A stretch of 64,000 nt of DNA, from positions 1 through 64,000 of the forward strand of contig JAJYWN010000063.1 of assembly GCA_021791495.1 (NCBI GenBank), given 5' to 3'. The DNA is from Bacillota bacterium (GTDB taxonomy: Bacteria > Bacillota > Sulfobacillia > JAJYWN01). Of the stretch, positions 170 through 59,945 are shown piece after piece (positions within the stretch are counted from its first letter, which is position 1; each line of letters begins with the position of its first letter). The translations under genes and the position numbers were made by a program. The notes beneath the pieces were generated by a model. That model searched no databases. It was not told the origin of the DNA and saw only the letters and a list, made by a program, of their open reading frames with translations.

Positions 170-438
170 GTACTAAATTTTAGGTTTTTGTGGACTCAAA
201 AACCGGAAATTCCGGTATCCAGCACACAAAGCACACCCCGGGTACCCCCGGGAAGGTCAAGTCAGCCCCGTAGTGAACAGAACATCGGCCATTCCGTTAA
301 CAAGAAGTTCGTGGCTGCCGGTTTTGGGGGTCGGAAACCCTTGGCGGCCGTCCGAATCGGCCTCTTTTTCTCCTCTTCGCGGCCACGTGTACTAAATTTC
401 CGGTTTTTCCTGCCAGCGATATCGGAAATCTAGTACAC
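170..438. repeat. Paired hairpin element, family 1 (TACTAAATTT type)
   Basis: Two units with the same design lie about 215 bp apart. Each starts with TGTACTAAATTT and ends near CAGCACAC or AGTACAC. The second unit folds into a long stem: 387-402 pairs with 423-438 with one mismatch around a 20-nt loop. The first unit contains the stem GGTTTTTG (183-190) / CAAAAACC (197-204) and the palindrome ACCGGAAATTCCGGT (202-216). The rest of positions 1-570 is G-rich, with no convincing gene. Function is unknown. The design resembles the elements near 4.97, 26.7, 36.4, 42.6, 56.1 and 59.8 kb, although the motif differs. Confidence 0.6.
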
Positions 439-638
439 CCCCGCTTCCAGTCCCGCTCCCGCCTCCAACCCCGAACCCTGCCTTCGCTTGCGTCCTCGCC
501 CTTATCCTTGCCACGGTTCCCTTCACTGGAAGCTCTAGCCGCCTGTCCAACGCCTTCAGCTTTTCTCGGGGCGTGTTCGGTAAGACATGCCGTGTAACTA
601 CACGGTTCGGCGGGTCTGAACGGCTACCCCCGAAAAGA

Positions 639-685
639 TTCTTCCTGGAAGGCGAAGGATTTGGTGGTTGCGGTCTGAAGGGTTC
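639..685 (+). repeat. Dispersed leader repeat, copy 1
   Basis: This is one of four copies of a roughly 50-nt sequence with core CTGGAAGGCGAAGGATTTGG, preceded by a T-run and followed by a GGGTTC box. The others are near 1654, 10506 and 22441. This copy lies upstream of a duplicated gene tail rather than an intact gene. Function is unknown. Confidence 0.6.
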
Positions 686-699
686 CACCGAGAGAGGAG

Positions 700-960
700 A
701 GGGGAAGCTTCAGACTCTGACGCGCTTGGGGGCGCAGGGGAGGAACTGGGCGGTGGGACTTCCGGTGGCACTTCGGGATACTGGGCTGGGGGACAGCAGG
801 TTCGAGGAGAGCCGGCTTGCGAGCGGTCAGGGTACGGCCAGCTGGCTCGCAGACGGCCGGCCCACGGACAATCAGCTTCGAATCATCCACGGAGGGACAG
901 GACGCAGTCCGACGGACTTGCCGTCTTTCGCCGGGGACGAAAGCGGTGGCGAATCAACTG
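700..960 (+). pseudogene. Remnant duplicating the 3' end of the 1763-2494 gene
   Basis: The segment repeats the 3' end of the gene at 1763-2494. Both carry a stretch coding GGTSGG-like residues, and both share GACGCAGTCCGACGGAC (901-917 and 2455-2471) followed by similar sequence. No start or upstream domain survives here. I read it as the tail of a lost paralogue, with repeat copy 1 just before it. A long frame runs through it into the coiled-coil gene at 1131, but that gene has its own ribosome binding site, so the fused frame is probably not used. Confidence 0.45.
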
Positions 961-1130
961 ATTACCGGACACTGCTCGAAACGATGCCCGTTGGCCTTGA
1001 AACCTGGATGGAAGGGAATACCGGAATCTGTGCGGAAACGGTAAGCTATAGTGAAGATGCTGGGGCAGATAGTCGGACAAACACCGGTTCCGGCGCGGAG
1101 CACGAAAGGCCTGGAGGGGGCGATACGGCG

Positions 1131-1553
1131 ATGGGTGACGAGTGGCTTAAGACGCTCCTCGAAAAGATGGACCAGGACCGCCGTGATGGCGAGGCGCGGC
1201 AGGCCGCGTCGGTCGCACGTATCGAGCACCTCGTCGAGGGGCAGGCCGCGAAGCTCGACGAGTTAGGCCGGAGAATCGACGATAGCCGAAGTGAGATCAT
1301 GGGCCGAGTTGAGGGTGTTCGTGATGAGATCATCGGCCAAGTCGAGAACGTTCGGAGCGAGGTCATCGGTCGAGTCGAGGATGTCCGCAAAGAGGTCAAC
1401 GATGTCCGCAGAGAGGTCACGGGCCGGATGGACCAAGCCTATGTCCATTTCCAATCGGCCACCGCGGCTGTCCGCTGGGCCTCCATTTCGACCGTTATAG
1501 GAATCGCGGCCATTGCCCTTGCCGCAGTGGTAGCTATCCTGGGGCTTCGGTAG
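1131..1553 (+). CDS. Coiled-coil protein with C-terminal membrane anchor
   Basis: A 140-residue protein of unknown function. The open frame extends upstream, but ATG at 1131 has a GGAGGGGG ribosome binding site at a good distance, and the upstream frame overlaps a decayed repeat region. Residues about 20-100 are highly charged and predicted coiled coil, with 11-residue repeats of the type RSEIMGRVEGV, RDEIIGQVENV, RSEVIGRVEDV. The C-terminus is one hydrophobic segment (STVIGIAAIALAAVVAILGL), so the protein is probably tail-anchored with the coiled coil in the cytoplasm. It resembles DUF1640-like anchored coiled coils in general design only. No neighbour suggests a role. Confidence 0.75.
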   Translation: MGDEWLKTLLEKMDQDRRDGEARQAASVARIEHLVEGQAAKLDELGRRIDDSRSEIMGRVEGVRDEIIGQVENVRSEVIGRVEDVRKEVNDVRREVTGRMDQAYVHFQSATAAVRWASISTVIGIAAIALAAVVAILGLR

Positions 1554-1653
1554 CCCTCTTTCAATTACTTCCCCGAAGTATTTGCCCTTGGGTCCACCCG
1601 TGGTTACGGTGGATTGACGCCGCCCGCCCGGATCTCCCCGATACCAGAATCAC

Positions 1654-1702
1654 TTTTTCCCTGGAAGATAGAGGATTTGGTGAGCGCGCTGCCAAGGGTT
1701 CG
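1654..1702 (+). repeat. Dispersed leader repeat, copy 2
   Basis: T-run, CTGGAAGATAGAGGATTTGG, then GCCAAGGGTTC, matching copies near 639, 10506 and 22441. It lies about 60 nt upstream of the start of the 1763 gene, where a transcribed leader would be expected. Function is unknown. Confidence 0.6.
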
Positions 1703-1762
1703 GTCGACAGGCAACGCCGAGATCGCCACCAAATAGCCTTCAGTCTTGAGGAGTGCGGGAAT

Positions 1763-2494
1763 ATGGAGAACGTGAACCTTAACCTGGTAACCAGGAACCT
1801 AACCTGCCTATTCGGCACCTTCGACAGGAACAAGGTCAAGGTCGATCCTTTGCGGGAGTTGGTACCGGGCGAGGTCCCGAAGGGCGGCATCAGCCAAGAT
1901 CCAAGCAGTGTCTGGGTGTTCAACTATGCCCGCGCCGGTCTGCAGGTGTTCCTGATGGAGCGCCACTTGGCCATCATCGCCGGCGGGCCGTCGGATTCGG
2001 AGGTTTCACGCGACTTCATCCCCCTGTGCGGACAGGTGCTCAGGGCATGCGGCGAGAACGTGATGTCTGCCTTCGGGTTCAACTTTGATTTTGAGGTGGA
2101 TACGGGGGACGCGGGTGAGTCGCTCGCGGTAGCGGCTGGCTTGCCTGACCGCCTTCTCCGGCCCTTGGGACATGTGCTGGCCACTGGGGTGACCTTTCGT
2201 CTCGTATACCGGGATGAAGGCGTTCTATACACCGTTGAGTTGCAGGATGGCACCGCGCCAACCGTGCACCTAAACGTCCACTTCGCCGGAGACATGAAGG
2301 TTGAGGATCTTGCCGGAGCGGTGGCCGACCGTTACTCCGAGAGCCTGGAGAAGGGAACGCGTCTGATTGGGGCGGTGCTGGGCGGTGGCAGTTCCGGCGG
2401 CACTTCTGGGCAACAGGCTGATGGAAGACAGGCTTTAGGCCAGCGGACGGATGGGACGCAGTCCGACGGACCCGCCTTCACTCGGCAAGGATGA
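1763..2494 (+). CDS. Hypothetical protein with disordered tail
   Basis: A 243-residue protein I do not recognise. ATG at 1763 is preceded by GAGGAG at a suitable distance. There is no signal peptide or membrane segment. Residues 1-205 look like a soluble alpha/beta domain, with alternating hydrophobic strands such as VTFRLVYRDEGVLYTVEL and TVHLNVHF. Residues 206-243 are Gly/Ser/Gln-rich and probably disordered. The 3' end is duplicated upstream at about 700-960. A copy of the dispersed leader repeat lies just upstream. The coding looks genuine; the function is open. Confidence 0.65.
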   Translation: MENVNLNLVTRNLTCLFGTFDRNKVKVDPLRELVPGEVPKGGISQDPSSVWVFNYARAGLQVFLMERHLAIIAGGPSDSEVSRDFIPLCGQVLRACGENVMSAFGFNFDFEVDTGDAGESLAVAAGLPDRLLRPLGHVLATGVTFRLVYRDEGVLYTVELQDGTAPTVHLNVHFAGDMKVEDLAGAVADRYSESLEKGTRLIGAVLGGGSSGGTSGQQADGRQALGQRTDGTQSDGPAFTRQG

Positions 2495-2824
2495 GGGCGG
2501 GGAGACGAGCGAAACGATCGCAGACGACCCCATCGGTCCCTCCACCTGACCGATGTCGCCATCACCGGGAGTGATGGTTCATTGGTGAGTGGTCAAAACA
2601 AAGCAGGCCCCAACCAAACCTGGCTTGTATCGCCTGATGCGACGCCTTCAGCCAACTATTCCTGGCCCGGGTGGGCACGAGTCTCGCTGGCGGTTTGATT
2701 GCCGAACCTGCGATACAAGTGTACCTGAGAATCGGCTGCCTCGACAAGGCCCGTCTTGTGACAGCTCATGTAACCTTCGATGGGAACAAGGTCACCTCCC
2801 GGTGGCGCTGCGACCGCGCGCCCC
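2495..2824. other. Intergenic stretch with possible gene relic
   Basis: No convincing complete gene. On the plus strand, 2671-2841 stays open for 56 codons with protein-like composition (for example AEPAIQVYLRIGCLDKARLV). It has no ribosome binding site, has a stop just upstream of the open stretch, and runs into the convergent gene fragment. It may be the 3' relic of a lost gene. Confidence 0.3.
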
Positions 2825-3718: not shown

Positions 3719-3753
3719 GTCCCATCTCTGCCCTCCTGTCTCTGCCTGCCAGC

Positions 3754-4599
3754 CTACTTGTTCCGCTTGTCCTGTGTGTCTGGCTTAGCCGCCGCTTCCG
3801 ACGTAGGCTGTGCTCCTGGCGCAGGTTGCCCGTCTAGCTTGGGCTGCGTTTCCGTGAGGTAGCTCTTCGGCGTCGTCCGCCGGAACCGGCTGCACTCCTG
3901 TTCAAGGAACCGGCCTACGGGGCTGTCCTCCACTCCTTCGCGCAGCGGCAGGAGGTTGCCAATCTTCACCCGTATCCCCGCCAGGCTCAGGTCGTCTCGA
4001 GTGATGATGACCAGGGAAATGCCGTTCTCCGCGCACAAGCCCCGTTTGGTCAGGTCATTCGCCCGCCTCCTCCGGAAGCCCTCGCTGCTGGGATAGAGAA
4101 GGGTAGTGCCGTAGTGCTGGTCGCCGTTGAACTCGAAGGCTACCCTCGCTTCATAGTAGAACCGGTCGAATTCCAGCCTCTCACCCGTTAGCGGGTTCGT
4201 CGACTCAGCCACGCGGGCGTTATCTTCAAACTTGTCACTGGGAATCAGGATGGACAGGTCTTCCAGCATCAACTGCTGGGCGTAGTGTTCGGCTCTCTTC
4301 AAACGCTTGATCACCTGATCGAGGAGCGTAACCCAGGATTCGGCACCTTCATGCCTCATGAGGTACTCTCCGCGCCCCAACCTCGTGACCAGCCCGGCAT
4401 CGATCAGCGCCTGCATCTGCCGGATAACAGTCTCTTTCGAGAGGTGGGTCAGCCTGCATATCTCGGCCAAGGTGAACCTGCAGCGAAACTCGCTTCCCTT
4501 GCTCTGCTGGAGGAGCACGGCGTACAAATGCTTGGCCGTAACCGTAAGGCTGCTGGACAGCAGAACGACGTCGGGGATGCTGGTAGAGAACATGTCCAT
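3754..4599 (-). CDS. Winged-helix protein fused to Vsr/PD-(D/E)XK-type nuclease fold, paralogue 1
   Basis: About 281 residues. Residues about 10-95 form a winged helix-turn-helix (LAEICRLTHLSKETVIRQM, then DAGLVTRLGRGEYL as the wing). Residues about 125-215 match the Vsr/homing-endonuclease-like nuclease fold: Asp in LEFDRFY, the central strand VAFEFNGDQHY, then NDLTKRGLCAENGISLVII. A basic, Pro/Gln-rich tail follows. Start: ATG 4599 aligns with the paralogue at 25733-26536; TTG 4620 is an alternative with GGGAGG upstream. The combination suggests a DNA-binding protein that may also cut or recognise DNA. Nuclease activity is inference, because E-x-N replaces the usual E-x-D/K. A 10-bp tandem repeat lies immediately upstream. 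Confidence 0.7.
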   Translation of the reverse strand: MDMFSTSIPDVVLLSSSLTVTAKHLYAVLLQQSKGSEFRCRFTLAEICRLTHLSKETVIRQMQALIDAGLVTRLGRGEYLMRHEGAESWVTLLDQVIKRLKRAEHYAQQLMLEDLSILIPSDKFEDNARVAESTNPLTGERLEFDRFYYEARVAFEFNGDQHYGTTLLYPSSEGFRRRRANDLTKRGLCAENGISLVIITRDDLSLAGIRVKIGNLLPLREGVEDSPVGRFLEQECSRFRRTTPKSYLTETQPKLDGQPAPGAQPTSEAAAKPDTQDKRNK

Positions 4600-4636
4600 T
4601 AAAAACCACGCTCCGATCAAAAGTCCTTCCTCCCAC

Positions 4637-4690: not shown

Positions 4691-4961
4691 CGCTTCAGAT
4701 CTTACCTAGCGATGCGGCTTCACGCGGGTTCCCGCAAATCCTTCCGCTGGAAATTGGCTGGAACTCTGCGGCGGCTGGAGCGAACGGGGGCGAACGAGGA
4801 ACGGGGGCGACCAAGGGCGACAGGCTGAATAGGAGCGGGGTGAACGGGCCCCGAGGGGGCGGACGAAGGATGCAAACCGTGGCTACAGGAGGTGATTGAG
4901 GACGACCGGAGGAGACCGGAGGTGACCGAGGGCGACGGTCGGTTTCAAGGACCGCGCCCTT

Positions 4962-5200
4962 GTCGAACCTTCCGTCTTTCCGACCGGCGCCTCCTCCGAG
5001 GCCTCCGCAGGACGGTTGCGGATGTTCGGAGGACAGTTCCAGGCCGGCATTGCTGGCTGTGGTAGACATAACCGATGGACTTATGTTACCCAGAACGGTT
5101 TCTGGACACGTCCCGGACGGATTTTCTTGATCTTGACGGGCCTCGCCAGCTCTCAAGGCCCTTTGCCGAAGCCCCTCGGTCGGAAAGACGGAAACTTTCC
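4962..5200. repeat. Paired inverted-repeat element, family 2 (TTCCGTCTTTCCGACCG), copy a
   Basis: The 17-nt core TTCCGTCTTTCCGACCG occurs at 4970-4986 and, inverted, at 5177-5193. The left arm is preceded by GTCGAAC, as in the copy at 36354-36561. The interior (about 190 bp) has no open frame of note and is not obviously similar to the other copy. The layout is that of a non-autonomous inverted-repeat element. It lies between the winged-helix gene and the 3' end of the MBOAT gene. Confidence 0.6.
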
Positions 5201-5261
5201 GGGTCGCCATTCCGCCAAATCGACCGCCTGCCGCTCCGGCTGGCGGTCACGCCCGCCGGGC

Positions 5262-10505: not shown

Positions 10506-10554
10506 TTTTTCTCTGGAAGGCGAAGGATTTGGTGCAGGGGATGCCAAGGGTTCA
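10506..10554 (+). repeat. Dispersed leader repeat, copy 3
   Basis: T-run, CTGGAAGGCGAAGGATTTGG, then GATGCCAAGGGTTCA, immediately before the AGGAGG of the SLH gene at 10575. This is the best-preserved copy and lies in the 5' leader. The divergent gap 10276-10574 shows no other clear feature. Confidence 0.65.
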
Positions 10555-16843: not shown

Positions 16844-16996
16844 GTGCGGAAGCTTGCTGTTGTCTTTGCTATTGCCGCCATCATCCTTTCTTCCTTTCCC
16901 CGTGGTCCGGTCCCCGTCCAGGCTGCCGGGGCCGGCTGGACACACACCTGGACAAAGACCGATCTTGAGGGGTGTTTTGCTTGCGGCGTAAGGTAG
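16844..16996 (+). CDS. Small secreted peptide or truncated exoprotein
   Basis: A 50-residue product starting at GTG 16844, with AGGAGG nine nucleotides upstream. Residues 1-28 are a plausible signal peptide (KLAVVFAIAAIILSSF, then PVQAAGA). The mature part is only about 20 residues, with Trp and two Cys (DLEGCFACGVR). Its end overlaps the start of the stalk-domain gene by 16 nt. It could be a genuine small exported peptide. It could also be the 5' stump of a gene replaced by the tandem stalk-domain cluster. Confidence 0.45.
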   Translation: MRKLAVVFAIAAIILSSFPRGPVPVQAAGAGWTHTWTKTDLEGCFACGVR

Positions 16997-18591
16997 CGCT
17001 TCTGGTCTTGCTCCTAACCCTGCTTACCTGCCTCTCGTCCGTGGCCATCGCCGAAGTGAAGGGGAATGGGCTCTTCCAAGGGTTCCCCATCGTCAACCTC
17101 AAGGTCAATGGCGAGGCGGTCCAAAGCGATGTGCCCGCCATCAACTTCAATGGCCGCACCTTGGTACCGTTCCGGGCCATCGGGGACGCCATTAGGGCCA
17201 AGGTCGGCTGGGACGGTGAAACCCAGACGGCTAGTCTGGACACGCCGGACCTGAACGCGGAAGTGGGGGTTCTACAGGCCCTCTTTGATGCCGTCAAGCC
17301 GAGCACCACAGGCGGCGTGGTGGTGCCGTCGGCCATCAAGGCTGGCGTGAACACGGTCAAGATTGTGGGTTGGGGACTCCCGGTCAAGAACACCGAAATG
17401 GGCGTCATTCTGGTGAGGGAAGGTGCGCTCCAGAGCTCGGATGGAAAGGACCTGCAATCCGGGGTCCTAACGGTGGCGCCAAATGGCGTTCTTCTCCAGG
17501 ATACCGGTTCGCCGGAACGCAGGACCACTCGCTGGGGTGAGCTCTCGAGTGGGTTTTCGGACGTGAACCACTTGTCGATTCTAGGTGACGTCCAGAGGCT
17601 AGGAAAGGTCCATGTGGATGAGTACGGAAGGTTCGCCGGCGAATTCCGATCTGAGTTCCGATATGTCGGCACTCTGCACGTGTGGTTAGTTCCGGTCTGG
17701 GACTGGGCCGGGTTCACCGGCATGCTATGGGACCAACCCAGTCCCACGAAGACGGCCTTCGCAGACTTGGCGACCTTGACCGTCGGTCCCAATCCCCACC
17801 TGGTGGTATGCGGCGGGACATCGTTCTACCGAGTTGCCCCGCCTCCTCTCGTCGTAGACGATGCTTTTACCGGCCTTGCCCTGTGGGCATATGGTCTGGC
17901 ACCTGGAACGCCTGTCATTTTCCGGGTGGACGGAAAGCTCATTGGGCCGCTCGTCAGTCCCCATGGCGGACTCAACCGCTACCCTGAGACAGATCCTGAG
18001 GGACGGCTCTTCCAACTCCAGGGTGAGGATCGCCACATCTTCGGAGTGGAAGACCTGCCCGCTGAACAACTCTTCCGCTGGGCTAAGGATGGATCCTTCG
18101 ATGATAAGGTCGTACCGGTCCCGCTGGGAGAGGCCTTCAATAGCAGGGCCGATGCCGGTGGGCTGGCTCACGCATCCGCGAACTTCCCGGTACACGTATT
18201 AGGCACCGTTGACAAGATGGCCCCGTTCCCAGTGGGGGACCACACCGTAGAAGCGTTTCCCTCCGGTTCAGCCGTGCCCCTTGCGTCTGCCACCTTCGAG
18301 GTCCGTCCCCAATCTCCGATAACCGCAAGCCTCGAACGTCAGGTCGAGTGGCATGCGGATGGCACGCTAACCTACAGGGGTCAGATTCACGTGTCCGGTC
18401 TCTGGCCCGACCGTGTGGCCTCGGTATCGGTAGCAGACCCCCCCGAGCGAATGCCTTTTCCCGATGGGACGCTTACCGTTGGTTTCGTCTTGAAGGACCG
18501 GGTGAAGACCTTTTTTCCCAATTTCACGACGGTGTACCAGGAAGGGAAGGGTGGGGTCCGGGTACTGATAGACCTGCCCGAAGGACCGTAG
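16981..18591 (+). CDS. Secreted stalk-domain (CuAO-N) protein, tandem copy 1
   Basis: About 536 residues. The start is TTG 16981: it aligns with the GTG starts of the two downstream copies and follows GAGGGGTG. A signal peptide (ALLVLLLTLLTCLSSVAIA) is followed by one copper-amine-oxidase-N/stalk domain (FNGRTLVPFRAIGDAIRAKV). A conserved region follows (VKIVGWGLPVKNTEMGV...), then Ig-like or beta-rich segments with APFPVGDHTVEAFPSGSAVP-type sequence. This domain is a wall-associated module and does not imply amine oxidase activity. The next two genes are close paralogues, separated by about 60 nt, with matching leader sequences. Confidence 0.75.
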   Translation: MRRKVALLVLLLTLLTCLSSVAIAEVKGNGLFQGFPIVNLKVNGEAVQSDVPAINFNGRTLVPFRAIGDAIRAKVGWDGETQTASLDTPDLNAEVGVLQALFDAVKPSTTGGVVVPSAIKAGVNTVKIVGWGLPVKNTEMGVILVREGALQSSDGKDLQSGVLTVAPNGVLLQDTGSPERRTTRWGELSSGFSDVNHLSILGDVQRLGKVHVDEYGRFAGEFRSEFRYVGTLHVWLVPVWDWAGFTGMLWDQPSPTKTAFADLATLTVGPNPHLVVCGGTSFYRVAPPPLVVDDAFTGLALWAYGLAPGTPVIFRVDGKLIGPLVSPHGGLNRYPETDPEGRLFQLQGEDRHIFGVEDLPAEQLFRWAKDGSFDDKVVPVPLGEAFNSRADAGGLAHASANFPVHVLGTVDKMAPFPVGDHTVEAFPSGSAVPLASATFEVRPQSPITASLERQVEWHADGTLTYRGQIHVSGLWPDRVASVSVADPPERMPFPDGTLTVGFVLKDRVKTFFPNFTTVYQEGKGGVRVLIDLPEGP

Positions 18592-18651
18592 CCCGCGCTG
18601 CAGTAGCCGCACGTCGCAGCCGGACCCAAATCGTCCTGAGAGGTGTTGAAC

Positions 18652-20187
18652 GTGAAGCGCCAGACAGTTTTCGTGGTGGTTCTCCTCTCCTTGCTGGTGG
18701 GCCTCTCGTCCGTGGCCATCGCGGAGGTAAAAGGAAACGGCCTGTTCCAAGGATTCCCCATCGTCAACCTCGAGGTCAACGGCAAGGCTGTCCAGAGCGA
18801 CGTGCCCGCCATCAACTTCAACGGCCGCACCTTGGTGCCGTTTCGGGCCATCGGGGACGCCATTGGAGCCACCGTCGGTTGGGATGGTGAAACCCAGACG
18901 GCCAGCCTGGACACGCCGGACTTGAACGCGAAAGTGGAGGTTCTTGAGGCCCTCTTTGATGCCGTCAAGCCGAGCACCACAGGCGGCGTGGTGGTGCCGT
19001 CGGTCCTCAAGGCCGGCGTGAATACGGTCAAGATTGTTGGTTGGGGACTCCCGTTCAAGAACACCGAAATGGGCGTCATTCTGGTGAGGGAAGGTTCGCT
19101 TCGGAGCTCGGATGGAAAGGACCTGCCAGCTGGAGCCTTGACGGTGGCCCCAAACGGGGCTCTTCTCCAGGATAGTGGCTTGCCGGAGCAGAGGATCACT
19201 CGTTGGGGCAAGTTTGCGGGTACGGGTGGCACACCAGGAAATGCCCATGTCGATGAGTACGGAAGGTTCGTCGCGGAATTCCAATCCGAATTCCAATGCG
19301 TGGGCACACTGCACGTCTGGTTGGTTCCGGTCTGGGACTGGGCCGGGTTCACGGGCCCGCTGTGGGATCAGCCCTCTCCTGCCAAGACGGCCTACGTCGA
19401 CCTGGCAACCGTGACCGTCGCCACCAGTCCCCATCTCGTGGCAAGCGGTGGGGGCTCATCGGGTCTTAAGCGTTGCGTCGTGGATGATGCCTGCACCTCC
19501 CTCAACCTATGGGCGTATGGGCTAACGCCCGGGATACCTGTCATTTTCCGGGTCGACGGAAAGCTCATTGGCGGTCTCTATTGCGATGCTGAAGCAGGTG
19601 CCAAGAGCTGGCTCTTCAAGCTCCAAGGTGAAGAACGCCGCGTCTTCGGAGTCGAAGATCTGCCCGCTGAACAGCTCTTCCGCTGGGCTAAAGAGGGATC
19701 CTACGATAAGGTCGTACCGGTCCAGCTAGACGAGGCCTTGAATAGCAGGGCCGATGCCAGTGGGCTGGCTCACGCATCCGCGAACTCCCCGGTTAACGTG
19801 ATCGGCACCAACAGCATGTTTGCCCCGTTCCCGGTGGGGGTCCACACTGCAGAAGTGTTTCCTTCCGGTTCAACCGCGCCCCTTACGTCTGCCACCTTCG
19901 AGGTCCGTCCCCAGTCTCCGATAACTGCAAGCCTGGATCGCCAGGTCGAGTGGCATGCCGACGGTCGGCTAACCTACAGGGGAGTGCTGCATGTGACTGG
20001 CCTGTGGCCAGACTGTGACGCCATAGTATCGATAACATCCGGGCAAACACCTTTACCTGACGGCACGCTGACCACCAGTTTTGTTTTCGAGAACATCGAA
20101 AAGACCCGATTTCCCATATCCTGCTGGGTGTCCCAGGAAGGTCGGCGGGGCATTCAGGTCTTGCTGGATCTGCCCGAAGGACCGTAG
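18652..20187 (+). CDS. Secreted stalk-domain (CuAO-N) protein, tandem copy 2
   Basis: About 511 residues, from GTG 18652 with GAGAGG eight nucleotides upstream. Signal peptide, stalk domain (NGRTLVPFRAIGDAIGATV) and C-terminal half match copy 1 closely along the whole length, including FGVEDLPAEQLFRWAK and the SPITASLDRQVEWHADG region. A shorter segment after GRFVAEF and a smaller central insertion account for most of the length difference. Its 5' leader and first roughly 230 nt are almost identical to copy 3, which points to recent duplication or gene conversion. Confidence 0.75.
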   Translation: MKRQTVFVVVLLSLLVGLSSVAIAEVKGNGLFQGFPIVNLEVNGKAVQSDVPAINFNGRTLVPFRAIGDAIGATVGWDGETQTASLDTPDLNAKVEVLEALFDAVKPSTTGGVVVPSVLKAGVNTVKIVGWGLPFKNTEMGVILVREGSLRSSDGKDLPAGALTVAPNGALLQDSGLPEQRITRWGKFAGTGGTPGNAHVDEYGRFVAEFQSEFQCVGTLHVWLVPVWDWAGFTGPLWDQPSPAKTAYVDLATVTVATSPHLVASGGGSSGLKRCVVDDACTSLNLWAYGLTPGIPVIFRVDGKLIGGLYCDAEAGAKSWLFKLQGEERRVFGVEDLPAEQLFRWAKEGSYDKVVPVQLDEALNSRADASGLAHASANSPVNVIGTNSMFAPFPVGVHTAEVFPSGSTAPLTSATFEVRPQSPITASLDRQVEWHADGRLTYRGVLHVTGLWPDCDAIVSITSGQTPLPDGTLTTSFVFENIEKTRFPISCWVSQEGRRGIQVLLDLPEGP

Positions 20188-20247
20188 TCCGTGCCAGAGT
20201 ACCCGTTTGTATCACTTAGGCCCAGACCGTCCTGAGAGGTGTTGAAC

Positions 20248-21627
20248 GTGAAGCGCCAGACAGTTTTCGCGGTGGTTCTCCTCTCCTTGCTTGTCGGCCT
20301 GTCGTCCGTGGCTATCGCGGAGGAAAAAGGAAACGGCCTGTTCCAAGGATTCCCCATCGTCAACCTCAAGGTCAACGGCAAGGCGGTCCAAAGCGACGTC
20401 CCCGCCATCAACTTCAACGGCCGCACCTTGGTGCCGTTCCGGGCCATCGGGGACGCCATTGGAGCCACCGTCGGTTGGGACGGCGAAACCCAGACGGCCA
20501 GCCTGGAAACCCCGGACCTCGAAGCGAAGGTCCAGGTCCTGCAGGCCCTGTTCGACGCGGTCAAACCCAGCGCCATGGGCGGCGCGGTGGTGCCGTCGAC
20601 CGCCCCCGCCGGCCCGGCAACCTTGAAGGTGGTCGGCTGGGGGCTTCCGGTCAAAAACGTGAAGATGGCCGTTACGCTGGTGCGGGAAGGTCTTTTCAAG
20701 AAAGCCGACGGAAGCGATTATCCGCCTGGTCCCATAGACGTTACTCCGAATGCTTTGCTCCAGAAGGCAACCGGCTACGTCTCTCCTGTGTCACGAGTTG
20801 CCTGGCCCTGGGCGCTATTGTCCCGGGAGATCCCGGGGTTCATTAGCGAGCCTTCAGTTCTCGGGGCTGTTGACGTTGATGATCAGGGACGATTCGCCGG
20901 TGAGTTTCGAACCAGTCTGCGCGAAGTCGGCCCGGAATATGTTTGGCTGGTCCCCGTCTGGGAGCCTGGTGACGAGACTTCCGTCAAAACCGCTATCGTT
21001 GACCTGGCGGACTTGACGGTCGGTGTTAGACCGAATCTAGTTATCGGCAGCCTCGGTCGCGTCACGGCCCCACCATGCGTCATTGATGACGGATACACTA
21101 CGCTAGGCTTGACCGTCTATGGTCTGGAACCCGGAACACCAATTCGTTTCACCATTGACTCCGAACCACTCATGGTCCGTGGCAGCAACGGACCGGTTCC
21201 CGCCCGCAACGACGGCACCGTTTTAGCTGGCCCCAAGGGGAAGGCATCAAATCCCTACGTGCTCAGCCCTTTCTCACCGGGCACTCACAAGGTGCAGGTA
21301 TTCCAGGCCGGCGTGGCGACAGCTATCGCTGAGGGCACGTTCGAGGTCCGACCCAGGACGCCTATTACCGTCGTGGCTAGCTGCCAGGTCCAATTGCGGC
21401 CTGACGGTAAAGTGACGTTGAAAGGTGAGGTTAGGGTCTCGGGTTTGTGGCCAGATTGCGAGGTCAGCGTTTGGGGTGAACAGTGGAGGTGGCCGTCTCC
21501 CGACGGCACGCTGACTGTGGCCATCTCGTACGACTACGATAAGTCGATATTCCCCTTGACCGAATGGGTCTCTCAGGAAGGACGTCCGGGCGTCAAACAA
21601 ACGATTGATCTCCCGGTAGGTCCATAG
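20248..21627 (+). CDS. Secreted stalk-domain (CuAO-N) protein, tandem copy 3
   Basis: About 459 residues, from GTG 20248 with the same GAGAGG leader as copy 2. The signal peptide and stalk domain are nearly identical to copy 2. The remainder is divergent: the LFRWAK segment is absent and the C-terminal beta region is shorter, though SPFSPGTHKVQVFQAG and the PITVVASCQVQLRPDGK region are still recognisable. A conserved N-terminus with a diverged C-terminus suggests ongoing diversification of surface proteins. Confidence 0.75.
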   Translation: MKRQTVFAVVLLSLLVGLSSVAIAEEKGNGLFQGFPIVNLKVNGKAVQSDVPAINFNGRTLVPFRAIGDAIGATVGWDGETQTASLETPDLEAKVQVLQALFDAVKPSAMGGAVVPSTAPAGPATLKVVGWGLPVKNVKMAVTLVREGLFKKADGSDYPPGPIDVTPNALLQKATGYVSPVSRVAWPWALLSREIPGFISEPSVLGAVDVDDQGRFAGEFRTSLREVGPEYVWLVPVWEPGDETSVKTAIVDLADLTVGVRPNLVIGSLGRVTAPPCVIDDGYTTLGLTVYGLEPGTPIRFTIDSEPLMVRGSNGPVPARNDGTVLAGPKGKASNPYVLSPFSPGTHKVQVFQAGVATAIAEGTFEVRPRTPITVVASCQVQLRPDGKVTLKGEVRVSGLWPDCEVSVWGEQWRWPSPDGTLTVAISYDYDKSIFPLTEWVSQEGRPGVKQTIDLPVGP

Positions 21628-21687: not shown

Positions 21688-22548
21688 ATGAGCCGCGGTT
21701 TCCGAAGAGGCGCCTCTGTGATAGGCGCGTTGCTGCTGTTATTGATCCCGTCGGCGGTCCTGGCCAACGTCAACGGGCTGTTCGAAGGATACCCGGTGGT
21801 CAAGGTGCGGGTGAACGGTGTCGAACTCAGCCCCGACGTCCCGGGCATTAACTTCAAGGGGCGGACTCTCGTCCCGGTCAGGGCCATCACGGACGCACTT
21901 GGGGCCACTCTTAGCTGGGACTCGGCCACGTGGACGGCGGATATCCGCAGTTCCGCGGTGGCGTCGGCTGCGGGCGGAGCGGGGGTCTCGGGCGGGGGCG
22001 CGGCCGGTGGTGCGGGTGGCAGCGTAGTTGGCGGGGCGTCCGGTGGCGGCGTGTTGGGTGGCGCAGCCGGCGGATCCTTGGAAGACAGAGTCGCTGCCCT
22101 CGAATCCAAAGTGGCCGACCTGACCACCCGCCTAGACCAGGCCATGGCCACGATCGCCCAGCTTCAAAGCGCCGGCACAAGTGGCTCCTCCTCAGGAACC
22201 ACCACCAGTAGCGCGGGTTCCACCTCCGGGTCGACCTCAGCCCCCACGGGAACCGCGGGAACCGGCACCATCACCACCCCCGTTTTCCCCGGCTTCTTCA
22301 AAGACGTGAGCTACGACAATCCCGCGCTCTTCCTCCAGACCGGTCAGCAGACGAAGGCCACACCCGTCATCTTGAACGCCGCCGCCAGCATCCCGAACAA
22401 GAGCGGCATCGACGGCGTGGCGGTGGAGACTGCTTCGAAGTTTTCTTCTGGAAGTGGAAGGGTTTGGGATGGGGGATGCCAAGAGTTCAAGCAAGGGTTC
22501 AACCGTGAGGTAGCCACAGATTGGCGAGGCTGTGCTTTCCGGACATAA
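21688..22548 (+). pseudogene. Stalk-domain protein truncated by the leader repeat
   Basis: ATG 21688 has GGAGGGAGTAGAGG upstream. The product has a signal peptide (GALLLLLIPSAVLA), a stalk domain (FKGRTLVPVRAITDALGATL), a Gly/Ala/Ser-rich linker, a short coiled coil (SLEDRVAALESKVADLTTRL), a Thr/Ser linker and the start of a further domain (PGFFKDVSYDNPALFLQTG). From residue about 252 the frame runs through dispersed leader repeat copy 4, so the last 35 residues are repeat-encoded. I infer loss of the normal 3' end. A short functional product cannot be excluded. Confidence 0.6.
22441..22489 (+). repeat. Dispersed leader repeat, copy 4
   Basis: TTTTCTTCTGGAAGTGGAAG, then GGTTTGGGAT and GATGCCAAGAGTTCA, matching the copies near 639, 1654 and 10506. 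Unlike those, it lies inside an open frame and supplies the end of a truncated gene. It also sits about 130 nt upstream of the first Panacea gene, where it may have been its leader before the rearrangement. Confidence 0.6.
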
Positions 22549-25168: not shown

Positions 25169-25736
25169 GGTAGCGGGAGCGACCGGGGTCGGCGCGACTG
25201 CCAGGGCCGCCAGGTCTAATGGGTCTGCCGGGCCGCTGGCCGTGGTCGACGGGGAATTGCAGGGAGATTTCGAGGGGGGCAGGGGCGGCCTGGTCATAGT
25301 CGGCCCGCACGGCAAGTGCGCGGGGACGTTGAAGGCCGCCCGCCTCCGTATCGAGGGGGAGGTCCGCGGCGCCGTCGATGTCGAGACGGTAATCGAAGTC
25401 CTGCCACAGGGCCGGCTGACTGCCCGCGTCGAGCGGGGGCGGTTGGCGACGTCGCCGGGGGCGGTGGTCGACCTTCTTGAGGCGCCCAATGTGACTGCTA
25501 CGGTAGCTGCGCCTGCTGTGGCTACGGCCCCCACGTTCGCGACCAAGGCGACCTCAGCCTCCCCGCCCTCTGCCAAGATGACCGCTGCCCTGGCTACTGC
25601 GGCGCCCTCGACTGCCGTCAAGGCGGCCGCAGCCCCGGCGGCCCCCTCAACCCCAGTGACCGTCGCTGCAACCGCCACCCCCACGGAAACCAGGCGCAAA
25701 GTGGCTTTCAAGGGCGGTTATCAGGCCTGGCCCTAA
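25158..25736 (+). CDS. Bactofilin-like polymer-forming protein
   Basis: A 192-residue protein whose central region (about 28-105) is a bactofilin-type beta-helix: VVDGELQGDFEGG, GLVIVGPHGKCAGTLKAARL, RIEGEVRGAVDVETVIEVLP and QGRLTARVERGRLATSPGAV. The tail (about 115-185) is Ala/Thr/Pro-rich and probably disordered. Bactofilins self-assemble without nucleotide and scaffold envelope enzymes or DNA-segregation proteins. ATG 25158 overlaps the actin-like gene, implying translational coupling. The stop overlaps the convergent gene by 4 nt. Confidence 0.75.
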   Translation: MRRKVAGATGVGATARAARSNGSAGPLAVVDGELQGDFEGGRGGLVIVGPHGKCAGTLKAARLRIEGEVRGAVDVETVIEVLPQGRLTARVERGRLATSPGAVVDLLEAPNVTATVAAPAVATAPTFATKATSASPPSAKMTAALATAAPSTAVKAAAAPAAPSTPVTVAATATPTETRRKVAFKGGYQAWP

Positions 25737-26536
25737 GCCTTACCCTGCCCCTCCTCATTCTGCTGGCGTTGCTTCGCCCGCTCCTCCCGTTTCCGCTGGT
25801 CCCGCTCAGCCATCGAGTTGCGGTAAGCCTTGCACTCCTGTTCCAGGTATTTCACGACTGGATTCCCCTCGATGCCTGGCCGCAACGGCAGCAGGTTCCC
25901 GATCTTCTTCAATATCCCCTCGACGCTCAAGTCCTCGCGGTTCACCGTCACCAGCTTGATGCCGTTCTCGTCGCAAAGCCCGCGTTTGATGAGGTCCAAA
26001 GCCCGCCGCTTGCGAGCCTCCTCGCTGTTAGGGTACTTCGAGGTCGGGGCGTAGTGCTGCGCCCCCTGGAACTCGAAGGCCACGCCATCAAGGTAAAGAC
26101 GGTCGAACTCCAATATCTGACCGGTCAACGGATTGGTCATGAAGCCCAGGCGCGCCCCGTCCTGGAACCGCTCACTATCCACGCAGGCCGAGAGCAGCTC
26201 CCGCATCAGTTGCTCGCCTCGGTAGGTCGCGGCCTCAAGGCGGAGGACGACCTGGGCGCGCAGGCTGACCCACGCCGCCGCCGACTCGTCCTTGACCCGG
26301 TAACGGGAATTGCCGAGGGGGGTGATGAGGCCGGCCTGGGTCAGGAGTTCCAGGTTCTTGCGCACTGTGTCTCTCGACAGATGAGTAAGCTTGCAGAGCT
26401 GCTGTATCGTCAAAGTGCAGACACCGCCGCTACCTTTACTTTTCTGGAGAAGGGCCAAGTAGAGGATCTTGCCTAAGGCGGGAAGGTCACCGGAGAGGAG
26501 AACTACGTCGGGAATGCTGGTGGAGAATTGGTCCAC
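25733..26536 (-). CDS. Winged-helix protein fused to Vsr/PD-(D/E)XK-type nuclease fold, paralogue 2
   Basis: About 267 residues and clearly paralogous to the 3754-4599 gene, sharing FSTSIPDVVLLS at the start. Winged helix: IQQLCKLTHLSRDTVRKNLE, then LITPLGNSRYRVKD. Nuclease-like fold: LEFDRLYLDGVAFEFQGAQHY, then DLIKRGLCDENGIKLVTVN. The C-terminus is a Lys/Arg/Gln-rich helix. GTG 26536 follows GGAGGTG at ideal spacing; an ATG at 26551 overlaps that site and is less likely. Whether E-x-Q supports catalysis is uncertain. A paired hairpin element lies 200-480 bp upstream of the start. Confidence 0.7.
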   Translation of the reverse strand: MDQFSTSIPDVVLLSGDLPALGKILYLALLQKSKGSGGVCTLTIQQLCKLTHLSRDTVRKNLELLTQAGLITPLGNSRYRVKDESAAAWVSLRAQVVLRLEAATYRGEQLMRELLSACVDSERFQDGARLGFMTNPLTGQILEFDRLYLDGVAFEFQGAQHYAPTSKYPNSEEARKRRALDLIKRGLCDENGIKLVTVNREDLSVEGILKKIGNLLPLRPGIEGNPVVKYLEQECKAYRNSMAERDQRKREERAKQRQQNEEGQGKA

Positions 26537-26734
26537 GGTTGACACCTCCATAAGTCAGGCCGATGGGCCGGGCCTGCAGGCTGTCGGGTTCAGGTGGGTA
26601 TGGGTAAATCCTTCTACTGGAAACTCCCAACGCGAAATAATTTTTGCGACTGGACCTTCAAGGCGGGAGGCCGACAGTCGGGAAGGTCGCTGACGGACGG
26701 TGTTGACGGGTGTTACTGATGGCGTTGCCCGGAG

Positions 26735-27016
26735 CAATGCCGATATTTTCGTCTTTGAGTGATTCCAGAGACGACGAAATCGTCACGGGTCGAGGTCCAT
26801 GGTCCTCAGGGCGCGGTTTTCGGGCGAAAGCGCGGTGGTTTGGCATCTGGAACCGCGTGTGGTCGGATATAAGTCGACATAACGGCGACACTCGCCCCGT
26901 CTTATGTAAATTCAGAACGTGTTTTGAGGGCTTCGAAGGCTCTCCGAAGGCGCCAAGGGGGTGCCCTGCCGAAAATATCGTCTTTGGAATCCTCCAATGA
27001 CGAAAATATCGTCACT
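26735..27016. repeat. Paired hairpin element, family 3 (GACGAAAATATCGTC), copy a
   Basis: Two directly repeated units of about 48 nt lie at 26735-26783 and 26968-27016. Each begins GCCGA, contains TCGTCTTTG in the middle and ends with a GACGAAA..ATCGTCAC palindrome. CGTCTTT can pair with the downstream AGACG, so each unit folds into a hairpin. The same units recur at 56028-56283. The rest of the gap 26537-27243 has an AT-rich imperfect palindrome at 26631-26648 and no convincing gene. Confidence 0.65.
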
Positions 27017-36277: not shown

Positions 36278-36353
36278 GTCCGCGGGAGGTGGCAAATTCG
36301 TTTGTCGGCTATCCCCTCTGGCGGGGACGGTCTAGAAGAGGGAATGCCGGCAT

Positions 36354-36561
36354 GTCGAACGTTCCGTCTTTCCGACCGGCAGGTCGGCGTAGGGCTACTT
36401 GAAGATCGGAGACACCGGTGTTTGGGTCGACTCCGTAACATAATTAGTAATTATGAGTCAACTGGGACGAAGTCCGGGAAGGATTCATCGGCTCTGGCGG
36501 ACCGGAAGACCGGTCGGAAGGCGGAAAACCGGTGAGTGGTCGGAAAGACGGAGTGTTCGAC
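36354..36561. repeat. MITE-like element with 24-bp terminal inverted repeats, family 2 copy b
   Basis: The left end (36354-36377, starting GTCGAAC and including TTCCGTCTTTCCGACC) and the inverted right end (36538-36561) match at 22 of 24 positions. The 208-bp element has no coding capacity. Near its centre lies the AT-rich palindrome CATAATTAGTAATTATG (36439-36455), flanked by GACTC/GAGTC. The wider gap 36278-36831 also holds the hairpin CTCCTGGAACCAGGAG near 36655. No transposase is nearby, and no target-site duplication is evident by eye. Confidence 0.65.
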
Positions 36562-36831
36562 ACGGGAGTATTCCTTGGAACCGACCGGCGGGTCACCCGC
36601 GCGGCGTTCGTGTCTCCGAGTGATGTGACAATGATGATGATAATGAGCGAATTCTCCTGGAACCAGGAGGATATGCCGAAAAGCGGTGGAATAGGCTGAG
36701 GTAGTACAGACCGAAAGGCTTCAGGCCGCAACCCGGCAAGCGGGTACCTTCATCTCACCTCGGAGAACGTTCCCCTGCAAACATTGAATTCCGAGTTCAG
36801 TTCTAGCGGGTTTTCCACCGGGGGTGCTTCC

Positions 36832-42504: not shown

Positions 42505-42720
42505 GGCGGCCACCGCCAATTCTTGGCGAAGCCTCAAGCGAAATCGCCAGGAAGTATCGAATTCAGAATTCAGGAGGCCGATTTCCGCCAGATTCTGGCG
42601 GAGGCCGCCAGCAGATGATAGTTTTTAGCGGAAAACAGGCCTCACGGGGGGGCCGCGGAGGTCCAAACCACAAAACCTAGCGTTTTGGCCCCAGCCATCT
42701 GCAAGTTTTTGGCGGTTTCC
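42505..42720. repeat. Multi-palindrome element, family 4 (CGCCAGATTCTGGCG), copy a
   Basis: A cluster of short palindromes: CGCCAATTCTTGGCG near 42511, the perfect CCGCCAGATTCTGGCGG near 42586, TTTTTAGCGGAAAAC near 42622, AACCTAGCGTTTTGG near 42676 and TTTTTGGCGGTTT near 42706. The 65-nt core 42572-42636 is a close match to 59795-59860. It sits between the rho terminator and the aldolase gene. No gene is present. Confidence 0.65.
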
Positions 42721-49650: not shown

Positions 49651-49654
49651 CGTT

Positions 49655-53372: not shown

Positions 53373-54752
<1,380 letters not shown>

Positions 54753-55987: not shown

Positions 55988-56027
55988 GCCTCGACCGGCA
56001 GCCGGATAGGTCCGTGGTGGCGGCATG

Positions 56028-56283
56028 ACGATGGAATCGTCTTTGCCGAACCGAAAAGACGAAAACTTCGTCATCCAGTCTTCTGGGGACGGTCGGAAAG
56101 GATCCGACGGAGCTGAAGTTAACGGAACACCAGCCTGCAGTTTACCCATAACGGGTTATCCCAAGGGCTCAAGGGCGAAAATGGGTGCCATTGGGACCTC
56201 AACGGTCCCACGAAGAGGCCGAAACTGCATCGATGACTAGATTTCCGTCTTTTGTCCTCCGCAAAGGCGATATTTTCGTCATC
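56028..56283. repeat. Paired hairpin element, family 3 (GACGAAAATATCGTC), copy b
   Basis: Units at 56028-56077 and 56232-56283 match those at 26735-27016: AATCGTCTTTG...AAAAGACGAAAACTTCGTCATCC and TTTCCGTCTTTTG...GGCGATATTTTCGTCATCC. In each, CGTCTTT pairs with AAAGACG-type sequence. A half-unit (TTTTCGTCATC) also occurs at about 62349, before rpiB. The rest of the gap 55988-56516 has no gene. Confidence 0.6.
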
Positions 56284-56516
56284 CCACCCCTCCGCCAGCC
56301 GGCTGCCCGGCTGCCCAGCCACCCGACCGCTCCCGCCGCTCCCCCCACCTCCCCCCGCGACCTCGTGGCCGTCCGCCGCTGGTTCAGCCGCCGGCGGGCT
56401 CCCACCCTACAGGGACATGGCGCCGCCGAGCGAATGTAACTAGGAAACGTCCTACAGAAAGAGGTAAAGACAGAGGTACGGAAAGAGGCACAGATAGGAG
56501 AGGGGACGCGGTAACC

Positions 56517-57413: not shown

Positions 57414-57436
57414 GAGGAAAAGGAAGATGCGAAGAC

Positions 57437-58321
57437 TTGGATGCTCTTAGGATAAGTGACATTCTCCAGGCCGTCCGCGACGGGTCGTTGCCGGTCCAGG
57501 AGGCCCTGGGGCGACTGCGCGACCTGCCCTACGAAGACATGGGGTTCGCCAAGCTTGACCACCACCGCGGCCTGCGCACGGGGGTCTCTGAGGTGGTCTT
57601 CTGCCAGGGCAAGCGCACCGAGCAGGTCGTTTCCATCATGGAGCGGCTGGCGGCCCGCAATGCGACGGTCATGGGGACCCGGGCAACGCCCGACGTGGCG
57701 GCGGCGGTACGGGTGCGGCTGCCACAGGCCGAGTACTTCGACCTGGCGCGGATCATTGTGGTTAGGAAGGCGCCCATGGTAAGGAAGGCCGCGGACGACG
57801 GGGCGGTCGGCCCTGGGGCGGAGCCGAAGGCCAGAGTGGCCGTCGCCGGTGCCGCCGCCATCCTCTGTGCCGGCACAGCCGACCTGCCGGTGGCTGAAGA
57901 AGCAGCCGTCACCCTTGAAGTGTTAGGTGATCCCGTCGACCGCGTCTACGATGTGGGAGTGGCCGGTCTGCACCGCCTACTCGATCACCTTGAGCGCATC
58001 CGCGCCGCTAAAGTCCTCATCGTCGTGGCCGGCATGGAAGGGGCCCTGCCCAGCGTCGTCGGGGGGCTGGTGGACCGGCCTATCATCGCCGTGCCCACCA
58101 GCACGGGCTACGGCGCCAGCTTCGGCGGGCTGGCGGCGCTCCTTGCCATGCTGAACAGCTGCGCACCGGGCGTAGGGGTGGTCAATATCGACAACGGTTT
58201 CGGCGCCGCGCGTCTGGCCCACCTCATTCTAGCTGGGATGGAACCGGCGGCAGGCGCAGGAGCCGGAGCAGGCGCTGGAGCTGGAGCAGGAGCCGGAGCA
58301 GGCGCAGGAGCGACACCATGA
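57437..58321 (+). CDS. larB: LarB, pyridinium-3,5-biscarboxylic acid mononucleotide synthase
   Basis: A 294-residue LarB, which carboxylates nicotinic acid adenine dinucleotide and hydrolyses it in the first step of nickel-pincer-nucleotide synthesis. It has the N-terminal VFCQGKRTEQVVSIMERLAA block and a PurE/AIR-carboxylase-like C-terminal domain (CAGTADLPVAEEAAVTLEVL, VAGMEGALPSVVGGLV, PTSTGYGASFGGLAALLAML). The tail is a Gly-Ala repeat of about 28 residues, coded by a simple GGAGCAGGC-type repeat, which is unusual. The stop overlaps the larC start (ATGA). Confidence 0.9.
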   Translation: MDALRISDILQAVRDGSLPVQEALGRLRDLPYEDMGFAKLDHHRGLRTGVSEVVFCQGKRTEQVVSIMERLAARNATVMGTRATPDVAAAVRVRLPQAEYFDLARIIVVRKAPMVRKAADDGAVGPGAEPKARVAVAGAAAILCAGTADLPVAEEAAVTLEVLGDPVDRVYDVGVAGLHRLLDHLERIRAAKVLIVVAGMEGALPSVVGGLVDRPIIAVPTSTGYGASFGGLAALLAMLNSCAPGVGVVNIDNGFGAARLAHLILAGMEPAAGAGAGAGAGAGAGAGAGAGATP

Positions 58322-59628
58322 CCAAGGTCCTTTACTTCGACCTCTTTTCCGGTGTCAGCGGCGACATGCTCCTCGGAGCCCTGGTGGACGCCGGAGTCGA
58401 GCCGCAGGTCATCTTGGGCGCCGCGGCGGCGCTGGGGATCGGCGGCTACTCCATTCAGTTCGAGCCGTGCCAGAAGGGCGCCATCCGCGCCACCCGCGCG
58501 GTGGTGCGTACGGACGAAGACGCAGCTTCGCCAAGGGATGGGGCGTCCGGCCCCCACCTGCACCATCACCACCACCATCACCAACCCTCGCGCTGCCTGC
58601 ATGATGTTTTACATATTATCGGTGAATCAAACCTGAGCCAAGGCGTCAAGGACCTGGCCTCGGCGGTCTTCCGCCGCCTGGCGGAAGCCGAGGCCGCCGT
58701 CCACGGCTCGTCCCCGGAAGAAGTCCACTTCCACGAGGTCGGCGCCGTCGACGCCTTGATCGACATCGTCGGCGTCTCCGCCGGCGTGGTCGCCCTTGGC
58801 GCGTCATCCTTCTTTACCTCGCCTTTTCCCGTGAATCCAGGCACTGTGCGGACGGACCACGGGCCTGTGCCGCTGCCGGCCCCGGCCACCCTTGAACTGA
58901 TCAAGGGGTACGCCGTGCGCCCCTCTCCCTCGGAACGGGAGCTGGTGACGCCGACAGGGGCGGCGCTGGTGACTACCGTGTGCGCGCCGAACGAGGTTGG
59001 AGGGGCAGGCGGGGGCGGCGGCGCCCAGTGGCGCCACCCTGCGGGGAGCTGGCCCGCCATGACCGTGAGCGCCGTCGGCTACGGGGCCGGAACGCTGGAC
59101 CTACCGTGGCCCAACGTGGTCCGGCTGGTGGTGGGCGAGGTGGCGGCGTTACCGCCGCCGCCGGGTCTCGAGGCGGGCGAGATCATGGTGGCCGAAGTTA
59201 ACCTGGACGACATGAATCCGCAGCTATATGGGCCGCTCTTCACCCGCCTCCTGGAGGCCGGGGCGTTGGACGTGGGCGTACAGCCAATGTACATGAAGAA
59301 AGGCCGCCCAGGCCAGCTCCTGACGGTGTTGCTGCCCCCGGAGCGCGCGGTGGCGGTCATCCCGCTTATTCTGGCGGAAACGACCAGTTTGGGCGTGCGG
59401 ACGTACCTGGCCCGGCGCTGGATGCTGCAGCGCGAGCAGGTGGAGGTCAAGACCGCCTACGGGACGGTGCGTGTCAAGGTGGGGCGCGCGGTCGACGGGT
59501 CGATCTTCAACGTTGCCCCGGAGTTCGAAGACGTGGCTAAGCTGGCCACCGACAGAGGTGTACCGGTGAAGGAGGTCCAGCAGGCGGCGCAGGCCGCCGG
59601 GCGACGGGCGCTGGGGCTGCCAGAATGA
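58318..59628 (+). CDS. larC: LarC, nickel insertion protein of the pincer cofactor pathway
   Basis: A 436-residue LarC that inserts nickel into the pincer nucleotide by a CTP-dependent reaction. The N-terminus YFDLFSGVSGDMLLGALVDA is the family hallmark, and EEVHFHEVGAVDALIDIVG is conserved. A His-rich stretch (about 79-90, HLHHHHHHHQ) may bind nickel. The C-terminal CTP-binding half (VNLDDMNPQLYGPLFTRLLE) is in the same frame. Lactobacillus makes full LarC by a programmed frameshift between larC1 and larC2; here none is needed. Translationally coupled to larB. Confidence 0.92.
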   Translation: MTKVLYFDLFSGVSGDMLLGALVDAGVEPQVILGAAAALGIGGYSIQFEPCQKGAIRATRAVVRTDEDAASPRDGASGPHLHHHHHHHQPSRCLHDVLHIIGESNLSQGVKDLASAVFRRLAEAEAAVHGSSPEEVHFHEVGAVDALIDIVGVSAGVVALGASSFFTSPFPVNPGTVRTDHGPVPLPAPATLELIKGYAVRPSPSERELVTPTGAALVTTVCAPNEVGGAGGGGGAQWRHPAGSWPAMTVSAVGYGAGTLDLPWPNVVRLVVGEVAALPPPPGLEAGEIMVAEVNLDDMNPQLYGPLFTRLLEAGALDVGVQPMYMKKGRPGQLLTVLLPPERAVAVIPLILAETTSLGVRTYLARRWMLQREQVEVKTAYGTVRVKVGRAVDGSIFNVAPEFEDVAKLATDRGVPVKEVQQAAQAAGRRALGLPE

Positions 59629-59734
59629 GCCGGCGCCACTCCGGAGTCGATGGAAGGAGGCCCCCAAACCCCCTGTTGACTCGGCCGTCCATTGTCCTCC
59701 CTTTGCCTAAGTCGAGGAGGGGAGCAGAGGAGAA

Positions 59735-59945
59735 CCGCCAAAACATGGCACCCCCACGCGGGGAAAACGCTAGGTTTTGTCTTTGTCAGACTATTGGAGG
59801 CCGATTTCCGCCAAATTCTAGCGGTGGCCACGAGACACCCACTAGATTTTAGCGGAAAACCGCCCCAAACCCACCGTCCTAGAGTGCCAACCGATAGATC
59901 TTAGCGATTTGCTTCTGAGACACCGCCAAATTCTGGCGATTTTCG
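59735..59945. repeat. Multi-palindrome element, family 4 (CGCCAAATTCTGGCG), copy b
   Basis: A set of short motifs: CGCCAAAAC near 59738, AAAACGCTAGGTTTTG near 59764, CCGCCAAATTCTAGCGG near 59810, TAGATTTTAGCGGAAAAC near 59843, GATCTTAGCGATTT near 59896 and CGCCAAATTCTGGCG near 59925. The core 59795-59860 matches 42572-42636. It lies between convergent larC and larE and supplies the 3' end of larE. Confidence 0.65.

What the first reader, a model, noticed from the sequence alone, without database searches (positions are those of the whole stretch)
170..59945. Seven intergenic elements share a paired-hairpin architecture but use different motifs
At 170-438, 4962-5200, 26735-27016, 36354-36561, 42505-42720, 56028-56283 and 59735-59945 there is an element of about 200-280 bp holding two or more self-complementary units, usually one near each end. 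Four motif families are visible (TACTAAATTT; TTCCGTCTTTCCGACCG; GACGAAAATATCGTC; CGCCAAATTCTGGCG). Three of them occur at least twice, tens of kilobases apart. The same layout with different motifs argues for one mechanism with variable specificity rather than a single expanding repeat.
Basis: partly seen in the sequence, partly recalled or inferred. Interest (0 to 1): 0.82.

Follow-up and report, generated by a model that had tools for sequence, protein, structure and literature searches.

The report
Modular miniature elements with interchangeable ends
Scattered between the genes of an uncultured bacterium are short non-coding DNA elements of about 250-290 bp whose two ends come in several sequence versions, while several versions share the same motif in the middle, which makes them look like a modular kind of miniature jumping DNA.

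Summary
Five of the seven elements (E1-E4, E6) share one layout: 256-291 bp, a 48-52 bp dyad at each end, the two ends inverted copies of each other. E5 and E7 are a separate three-dyad kind.

Genome-wide covariance-model searches find the end units almost only as inverted pairs spanning 248-292 bp: five elements in each of three families, plus a few single units. Within a family the ends are 71-74% identical; the interiors are hardly more alike than shuffled sequence. Yet families F3 and F4 share a central motif (GTTNACCRTAACG). Searching the genome with it exposed a new family (F10, three copies) and a likely fifth (F11).

E7's family and another family (F8) have copies about 89-95% identical, so paired-dyad units do spread here. 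There is no target-site duplication, no cognate transposase found, no clear covariation in the stems, and no F3 unit in 153 other genomes of the class.

Best reading: MITE-like non-autonomous elements with ends specific to different transposases and a shared central site, working like IS101/TIME elements but failing tests of membership there.

The parts
168..438 (.). E1, element of family F1: inverted terminal dyads 168-219 and 387-438; GTTAAC near the centre at about 296
   Evidence: Detector score 61; four more F1 pairs in the genome
4936..5226 (.). E2, element of family F4: terminal dyads 4936-4986 and 5177-5226; central dyad GACATAACCGATGGACTTATGTTACC at about 5065-5090
   Evidence: Profile and covariance-model hits; central motif
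26738..27014 (.). E3, element of family F3: terminal dyads 26738-26785 and 26967-27014; central GTCGACATAAC..CTTATGT at about 26873-26907
   Evidence: Detector score 66; E about 1e-12 with model R1 (a training sequence)
36328..36587 (.). E4, element of family F4: terminal dyads 36328-36378 and 36538-36587; centre GTAACATAATTAGTAATTATGAGTC from 36435
   Evidence: Detector score 61; model R2 (a training sequence)
42514..42719 (.). E5, family F7 (three-dyad kind): dyads at about 42514-42560 (by eye), 42582-42634 and 42671-42715
   Evidence: Profile hits 45.8 and 16.7 bits; 82% identical to E7 over 65 bp
56026..56281 (.). E6, element of family F3: terminal dyads 56026-56073 and 56234-56281; centre GTTAACGGAACACCAGCCTGCAGTTTACCCATAACGGG at about 56118-56155
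   Evidence: Detector score 66; central motif 12 of 14
59715..59959 (.). E7, family F7: dispersed repeat with three dyads at about 59734-59784, 59805-59858 and 59890-59940
   Evidence: Nine other full or partial copies at 91-95% identity and one 45-bp end in the genome

Best explanation
E1-E4 and E6 are non-autonomous, MITE-like mobile elements, or relics of them, of about 250-290 bp. Each end is a 48-52 bp dyad made of two inverted, internally palindromic half-units; I infer that it is the binding and cleavage site of a transposase supplied in trans, a different one for each end family. The middle carries a dyad shared between families (GTTNACCRTAACG and an inverted partner) that I infer is a common second site, most simply a co-integrate resolution site or a host-factor site. 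E7 and E5 belong to a different miniature repeat that has spread more recently. Shown: the paired layout, related ends at unlinked intergenic loci, conserved ends with unconserved interiors, a centre shared by F3, F4, F10 and F11. Inferred: transposition of F1, F3, F4 and F10, the enzymes, and the role of the centre.
For: Fifteen inverted pairs in three families, 248-292 bp, at places checked as between predicted genes. Ends 0.71-0.74 identical within families, interiors 0.57-0.60 against 0.57 for shuffled. The central motif used as a blind key found three F10 copies and one F11, scores 51-53 against at most 50 at 60 random places. E7 family: nine other copies at 91-95%. F8: seven copies in the part of the genome read, one pair 89% over 396 bp including the interior. 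Ends 47% GC, interiors 59%, flanks 67%.
Against: No target-site duplication above control. No longer element with the same ends and no cognate transposase found. No recent copies of F1, F3, F4 or F10, so their movement is inferred. F8 lacks the shared centre and F1 carries it weakly. Empty sites could not be examined. Part of the central motif came from the elements it was first scored on.
Confidence: 0.58

Rival explanations
1. Chromosomal sites selected in place: each family is the set of paired operators of one DNA-binding protein (looping regulator or nucleoid-organising protein), and the shared centre is a promoter or a common factor site.
For: Ends conserved while interiors are not, and stem covariation absent, as expected of protein half-sites. 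Two paralogous HTH genes, 54% identical, lie beside E2 and E3.
Against: By simple ORF calls some lie between convergent genes (C21, C56), where a promoter role is unlikely, and neighbours are unrelated. The HTH association is not seen at the other elements. E7 and F8 show that paired-dyad units spread as units.
Confidence: 0.22
2. REPIN-like or IS200/605-derived (PATE-like) elements whose single-stranded hairpins are recognised by a Y1 tyrosine transposase.
For: Palindromic half-units in inverted pairs resemble REP doublets (PMC3116915, PMC3733652). Y1 transposase genes are present at five loci.
Against: The Y1 loci examined belong with IS200/605 and have upstream ends unrelated to these families; about five copies per family; no selected pairing; no GTAG tag recognised in the end alignments.
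Confidence: 0.08
3. Structured non-coding RNAs or RNA regulatory elements.
For: Strong predicted folds; intergenic positions.
Against: No Rfam match; stem covariation not above shuffles in F1, F3 and F4, marginal in F8; interiors unconserved.
Confidence: 0.06

Closest known systems
IS101 and TIMEs (Tn3-derived miniature elements, 262 bp; PMC4133298)
   Same: About the same size, no genes, long inverted ends; the paper says IS101 combines ends with a resolution site and speculates the same for TIMEs.
   Different: Those ends are 38 bp and make 5-6 bp target duplications; here ends are 48-52 bp dyads, there is no duplication, and one centre occurs with several unrelated ends.
REPINs / REP doublets with RAYTs (PMC3116915, PMC3733652)
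   Same: Inverted pairs of short palindromic units in intergenic DNA; several families in one genome.
   Different: Few copies, two paired units about 150-190 bp apart, a shared centre, no RAYT tied to the ends.
PATEs (palindrome-associated elements of Haloquadratum, IS200/605-related; from my own knowledge, name found in PMC3119063)
   Same: Palindromes near both ends, variable interior, no target duplication.
   Different: Ends here do not match the genome's IS605-type ends.
MITEs in general
   Same: Short, non-coding, terminal inverted repeats, dispersed intergenic copies.
   Different: A MITE family normally has related interiors and one parent; here interiors are unrelated and the centre is shared between end families.

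Membership tests
MITE (generic) | Short non-coding element with terminal inverted repeats | tested here: met
   248-292 bp with 48-52 bp inverted ends
MITE (generic) | Several dispersed copies | tested here: met
   Five copies each of F1, F3 and F4, three of F10
MITE (generic) | Target-site duplication | tested here: not met
   Flanking direct repeats at 19 elements are no longer than at random places
MITE (generic) | Autonomous element with the same ends | tested here: inconclusive
   End models found no longer element with the same ends, but the draft has 81 contigs that break at repeats
TIME / IS101 (Tn3 family) | Tn3-type ends of about 38 bp with 5-6 bp target duplication | tested here: not met
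   Ends differ in length and show no common Tn3-type start; no duplication
TIME / IS101 (Tn3 family) | Resolution site acted on by a resolvase | tested here: inconclusive
   A shared central dyad exists; its function is not known
TIME / IS101 (Tn3 family) | Tn3 transposase in the cell | not tested
REPIN / RAYT | RAYT or Y1 gene flanked by the same palindromes | tested here: not met
   No F3, F4 or F7 unit in the Y1 loci; the one F1 unit is an intact F1 element downstream of a tnpB on C56
Structured RNA | Compensatory base changes in the stems | tested here: not met
   F1, F3 and F4 at shuffle level, F8 marginal, 9-12 sequences each

The most novel reading that the evidence does not exclude
A modular class of miniature mobile elements in which a common central recombination module is combined with exchangeable, transposase-specific end modules, so that unrelated transposases each mobilise the same core.
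Probability: 0.25. Interest if true: 0.72.

Novelty: new variant of a known kind. Interest (0 to 1): 0.5.

Why it matters
Non-autonomous elements are usually classed by their ends, with the interior treated as filler. A set with different ends and a shared central site would show that a core can be passed between end types, and would give a direct way to look for the enzymes acting on each part. It also shows that paired palindromes in intergenic DNA need not be RNA structures.

Tried and rejected
Rfam on the window: nothing. One alignment of all seven elements: no common sequence. Simple hairpin count in the window: not clearly above shuffles. Exact E7 pattern in other genomes: none. IS605 as parent: upstream ends differ. 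IS1182 as parent of F7 or F8: fragments lie beside E7 copies, but the IS1182 copy on C62 has 24-bp ends (CTCTAGGAGTCTGTCGGGCAAATC) unlike F7 or F8, so the adjacency looks like nested insertion. HTH gene as a general partner: only at E2 and E3. k-mer enrichment of interiors without a motif: not significant. Same layout in 355 kb of a same-order genome: nothing above noise. Papers on modular MITEs: none found that describe this arrangement.

Full report
Setting. The window is contig C74 (65.5 kb) of a 4.2 Mb, 81-contig draft genome; the nearest genomes held are of the same order but other families. The one named protein relative found is 37% identical, from a Bacillota soil genome; SLH-domain proteins in the window fit Bacillota, but the lineage is not established here.

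Observation. The seven places named do carry palindromic units. Counting single hairpins is not informative: 8 in the window against 5-6 in shuffles. What is beyond chance is the arrangement. A detector that asks for two 48-52 bp self-complementary ends that are inverted copies of each other, 200-340 bp apart, gives E3 66, E6 66, E1 61 and E4 61; a Markov-shuffled copy of the same 442 kb reaches 55 at most. E2 is found by profile. E5 and E7 are of another kind, with three dyads.

Copies in the genome. Covariance models of the ends were run over the genome. F3 (TGACGATATTTTCGTC..): C74:26738-27014, C74:56026-56281, C28:43631-43908, C19:17875-18140, C9:9052-9318, and a degenerate cluster at C69:5188-5331. 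F4 (..TTCCGTCTTTCCGACCG): C74:4936-5226, C74:36328-36587, C72:46635-46913, C6:93968-94215, C21:31312-31603, and a single unit at C8:58563. F1 (GTGTACTAAATTTCCGG..): C74:168-438, C56:42542-42801, C7:53352-53643, C62:192855-193146, C7:8683-8974, and one weak unpaired hit at C62:86337. So there are 15 complete pairs of 248-292 bp and few single units. With F10 and F11, five of 19 elements lie on this one contig, where 0.3 would be expected (Poisson P about 1.5e-5, before allowing for the window having been picked).

Ends against interiors. Within families the ends are 0.71-0.74 identical; interiors are 0.57 (F1), 0.60 (F3) and 0.57 (F4), where shuffled interiors give 0.57. Ends are 47% GC, interiors 59%, flanks 67%. 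Constraint is on the ends. In a mobile lineage this is expected if ends are needed for movement while interiors drift; in a fixed site it is expected if the ends are bound. Sequence alone does not separate these.

The shared centre. Between families the interiors do not align better than shuffled ones, and k-mer enrichment alone is not significant. But a motif GTTNACC(R)TAACG, in several cases with an inverted partner, lies near the middle of many: C19, C9, E6 (F3), C72, C21 and E2 (F4) match 12-13 of 14, against 3 of 450 shuffled interiors and none of 29 flanks. The motif was read from some of these, so I used it as a blind key. A genome scan with up to one mismatch gave 40 places against 16 for the reversed control. 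Eight are in elements: four known (C19, C21, C9, C72) and four new. Three of the new ones (C26:7181, C47:58549, C64:63881) are flanked by paired dyads of a family not seen before, F10 (AGTGGGGAATTC.TGC..GGTGCATTTTTTGC), scores 51-53; the fourth (C23:3658) by another, F11, score 51; the best of 60 random places scored 50. The scores of F10 are modest one by one; that three of them share end sequence is what makes the family. F11 rests on one copy. F1 carries the centre only weakly.

Dispersal. E7's family has nine other full or partial copies at 91-95% and a 45-bp end; six of the nine are cut by contig ends, as repeats in a draft assembly are. Family F8 (GAGTCAACTCGGGATAC..GTATCTTGGGTTTACCC), found by the detector, has seven copies in the roughly 0.8 Mb read, one pair 89% identical over 396 bp including the interior. 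These two show that paired-dyad units spread in this genome; F8 does not share the F3/F4 centre. For F1, F3, F4 and F10 movement is inferred from related sequence at unlinked places.

Hairpin or half-sites. Stem covariation is at shuffle level in F3, F1 and F4, and marginal in F8 (32 of 500 shuffles reach the paired percentage). With 9-12 sequences this is limited, but it gives no support to a selected RNA or single-strand hairpin. I read the dyads as paired protein half-sites.

Partners sought. Y1 (IS200/605) transposase genes lie at five loci; the four upstream regions inspected show no F-type ends. An intact F1 element lies 229 bp downstream of a tnpB gene on C56, which I take as neighbourhood, since the other four F1 elements have no such gene. 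Two full IS1182-type transposases exist; the ends on C62 are 24 bp and unlike F7 or F8. No element longer than 292 bp with F1, F3 or F4 ends was found.

Elsewhere. F3 units: none in 153 other genomes of the class. E7: none in 60 relatives. The same layout with any motif: nothing above noise in 355 kb of a same-order genome.

Judgement. The layout is real and recurs with four end families (F1, F3, F4, F10) and a probable fifth (F11); the centre is shared by F3, F4, F10 and F11. The most economical reading is a set of non-autonomous mobile elements with transposase-specific ends and a common central site, working like IS101, in which ends and a resolution site are combined (PMC4133298). Membership in that group is tested and not met on ends and target duplication. 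The probabilities given are my judgement.

Noticed in passing
window 3754-4620 (-) and 25733-26551 (-): Two paralogous winged-helix HTH genes, 54% identical, each beside an element (E2 and E3); the other elements have no such neighbour.
   Followed up: partly
L107, L114, L115, L116, L117 near their E7 copies: E7 copies sit among broken IS1182-type transposase fragments with differing breakpoints, suggesting nested insertions at the contig ends.
   Followed up: partly
L122:9145-9547, L116:12601-12994, L117:13195-13628, L197, L202, L192, L107: Family F8, a dispersed repeat with paired dyads and an ATACCCC..GGGGTAT palindrome near one end, not in the window.
   Followed up: partly
L122:339-614: A further possible paired-dyad element (F9), one copy, score 53, within the shuffled range.
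   Followed up: no
window 645-685, 1661-1701, 10513-10553, 22448-22488: A 41-bp direct repeat (CTGGAAGGCGAAGGATTTGGTG..AAGGGTTC) in four places, 66-80% alike.
   Followed up: no
window 16963-20700: Three tandem, about 80% identical gene-sized repeats.
   Followed up: no
L191:5188-5331 (C69): Overlapping degenerate F3 units outside the paired layout, overlapping the start of a predicted ORF.
   Followed up: partly
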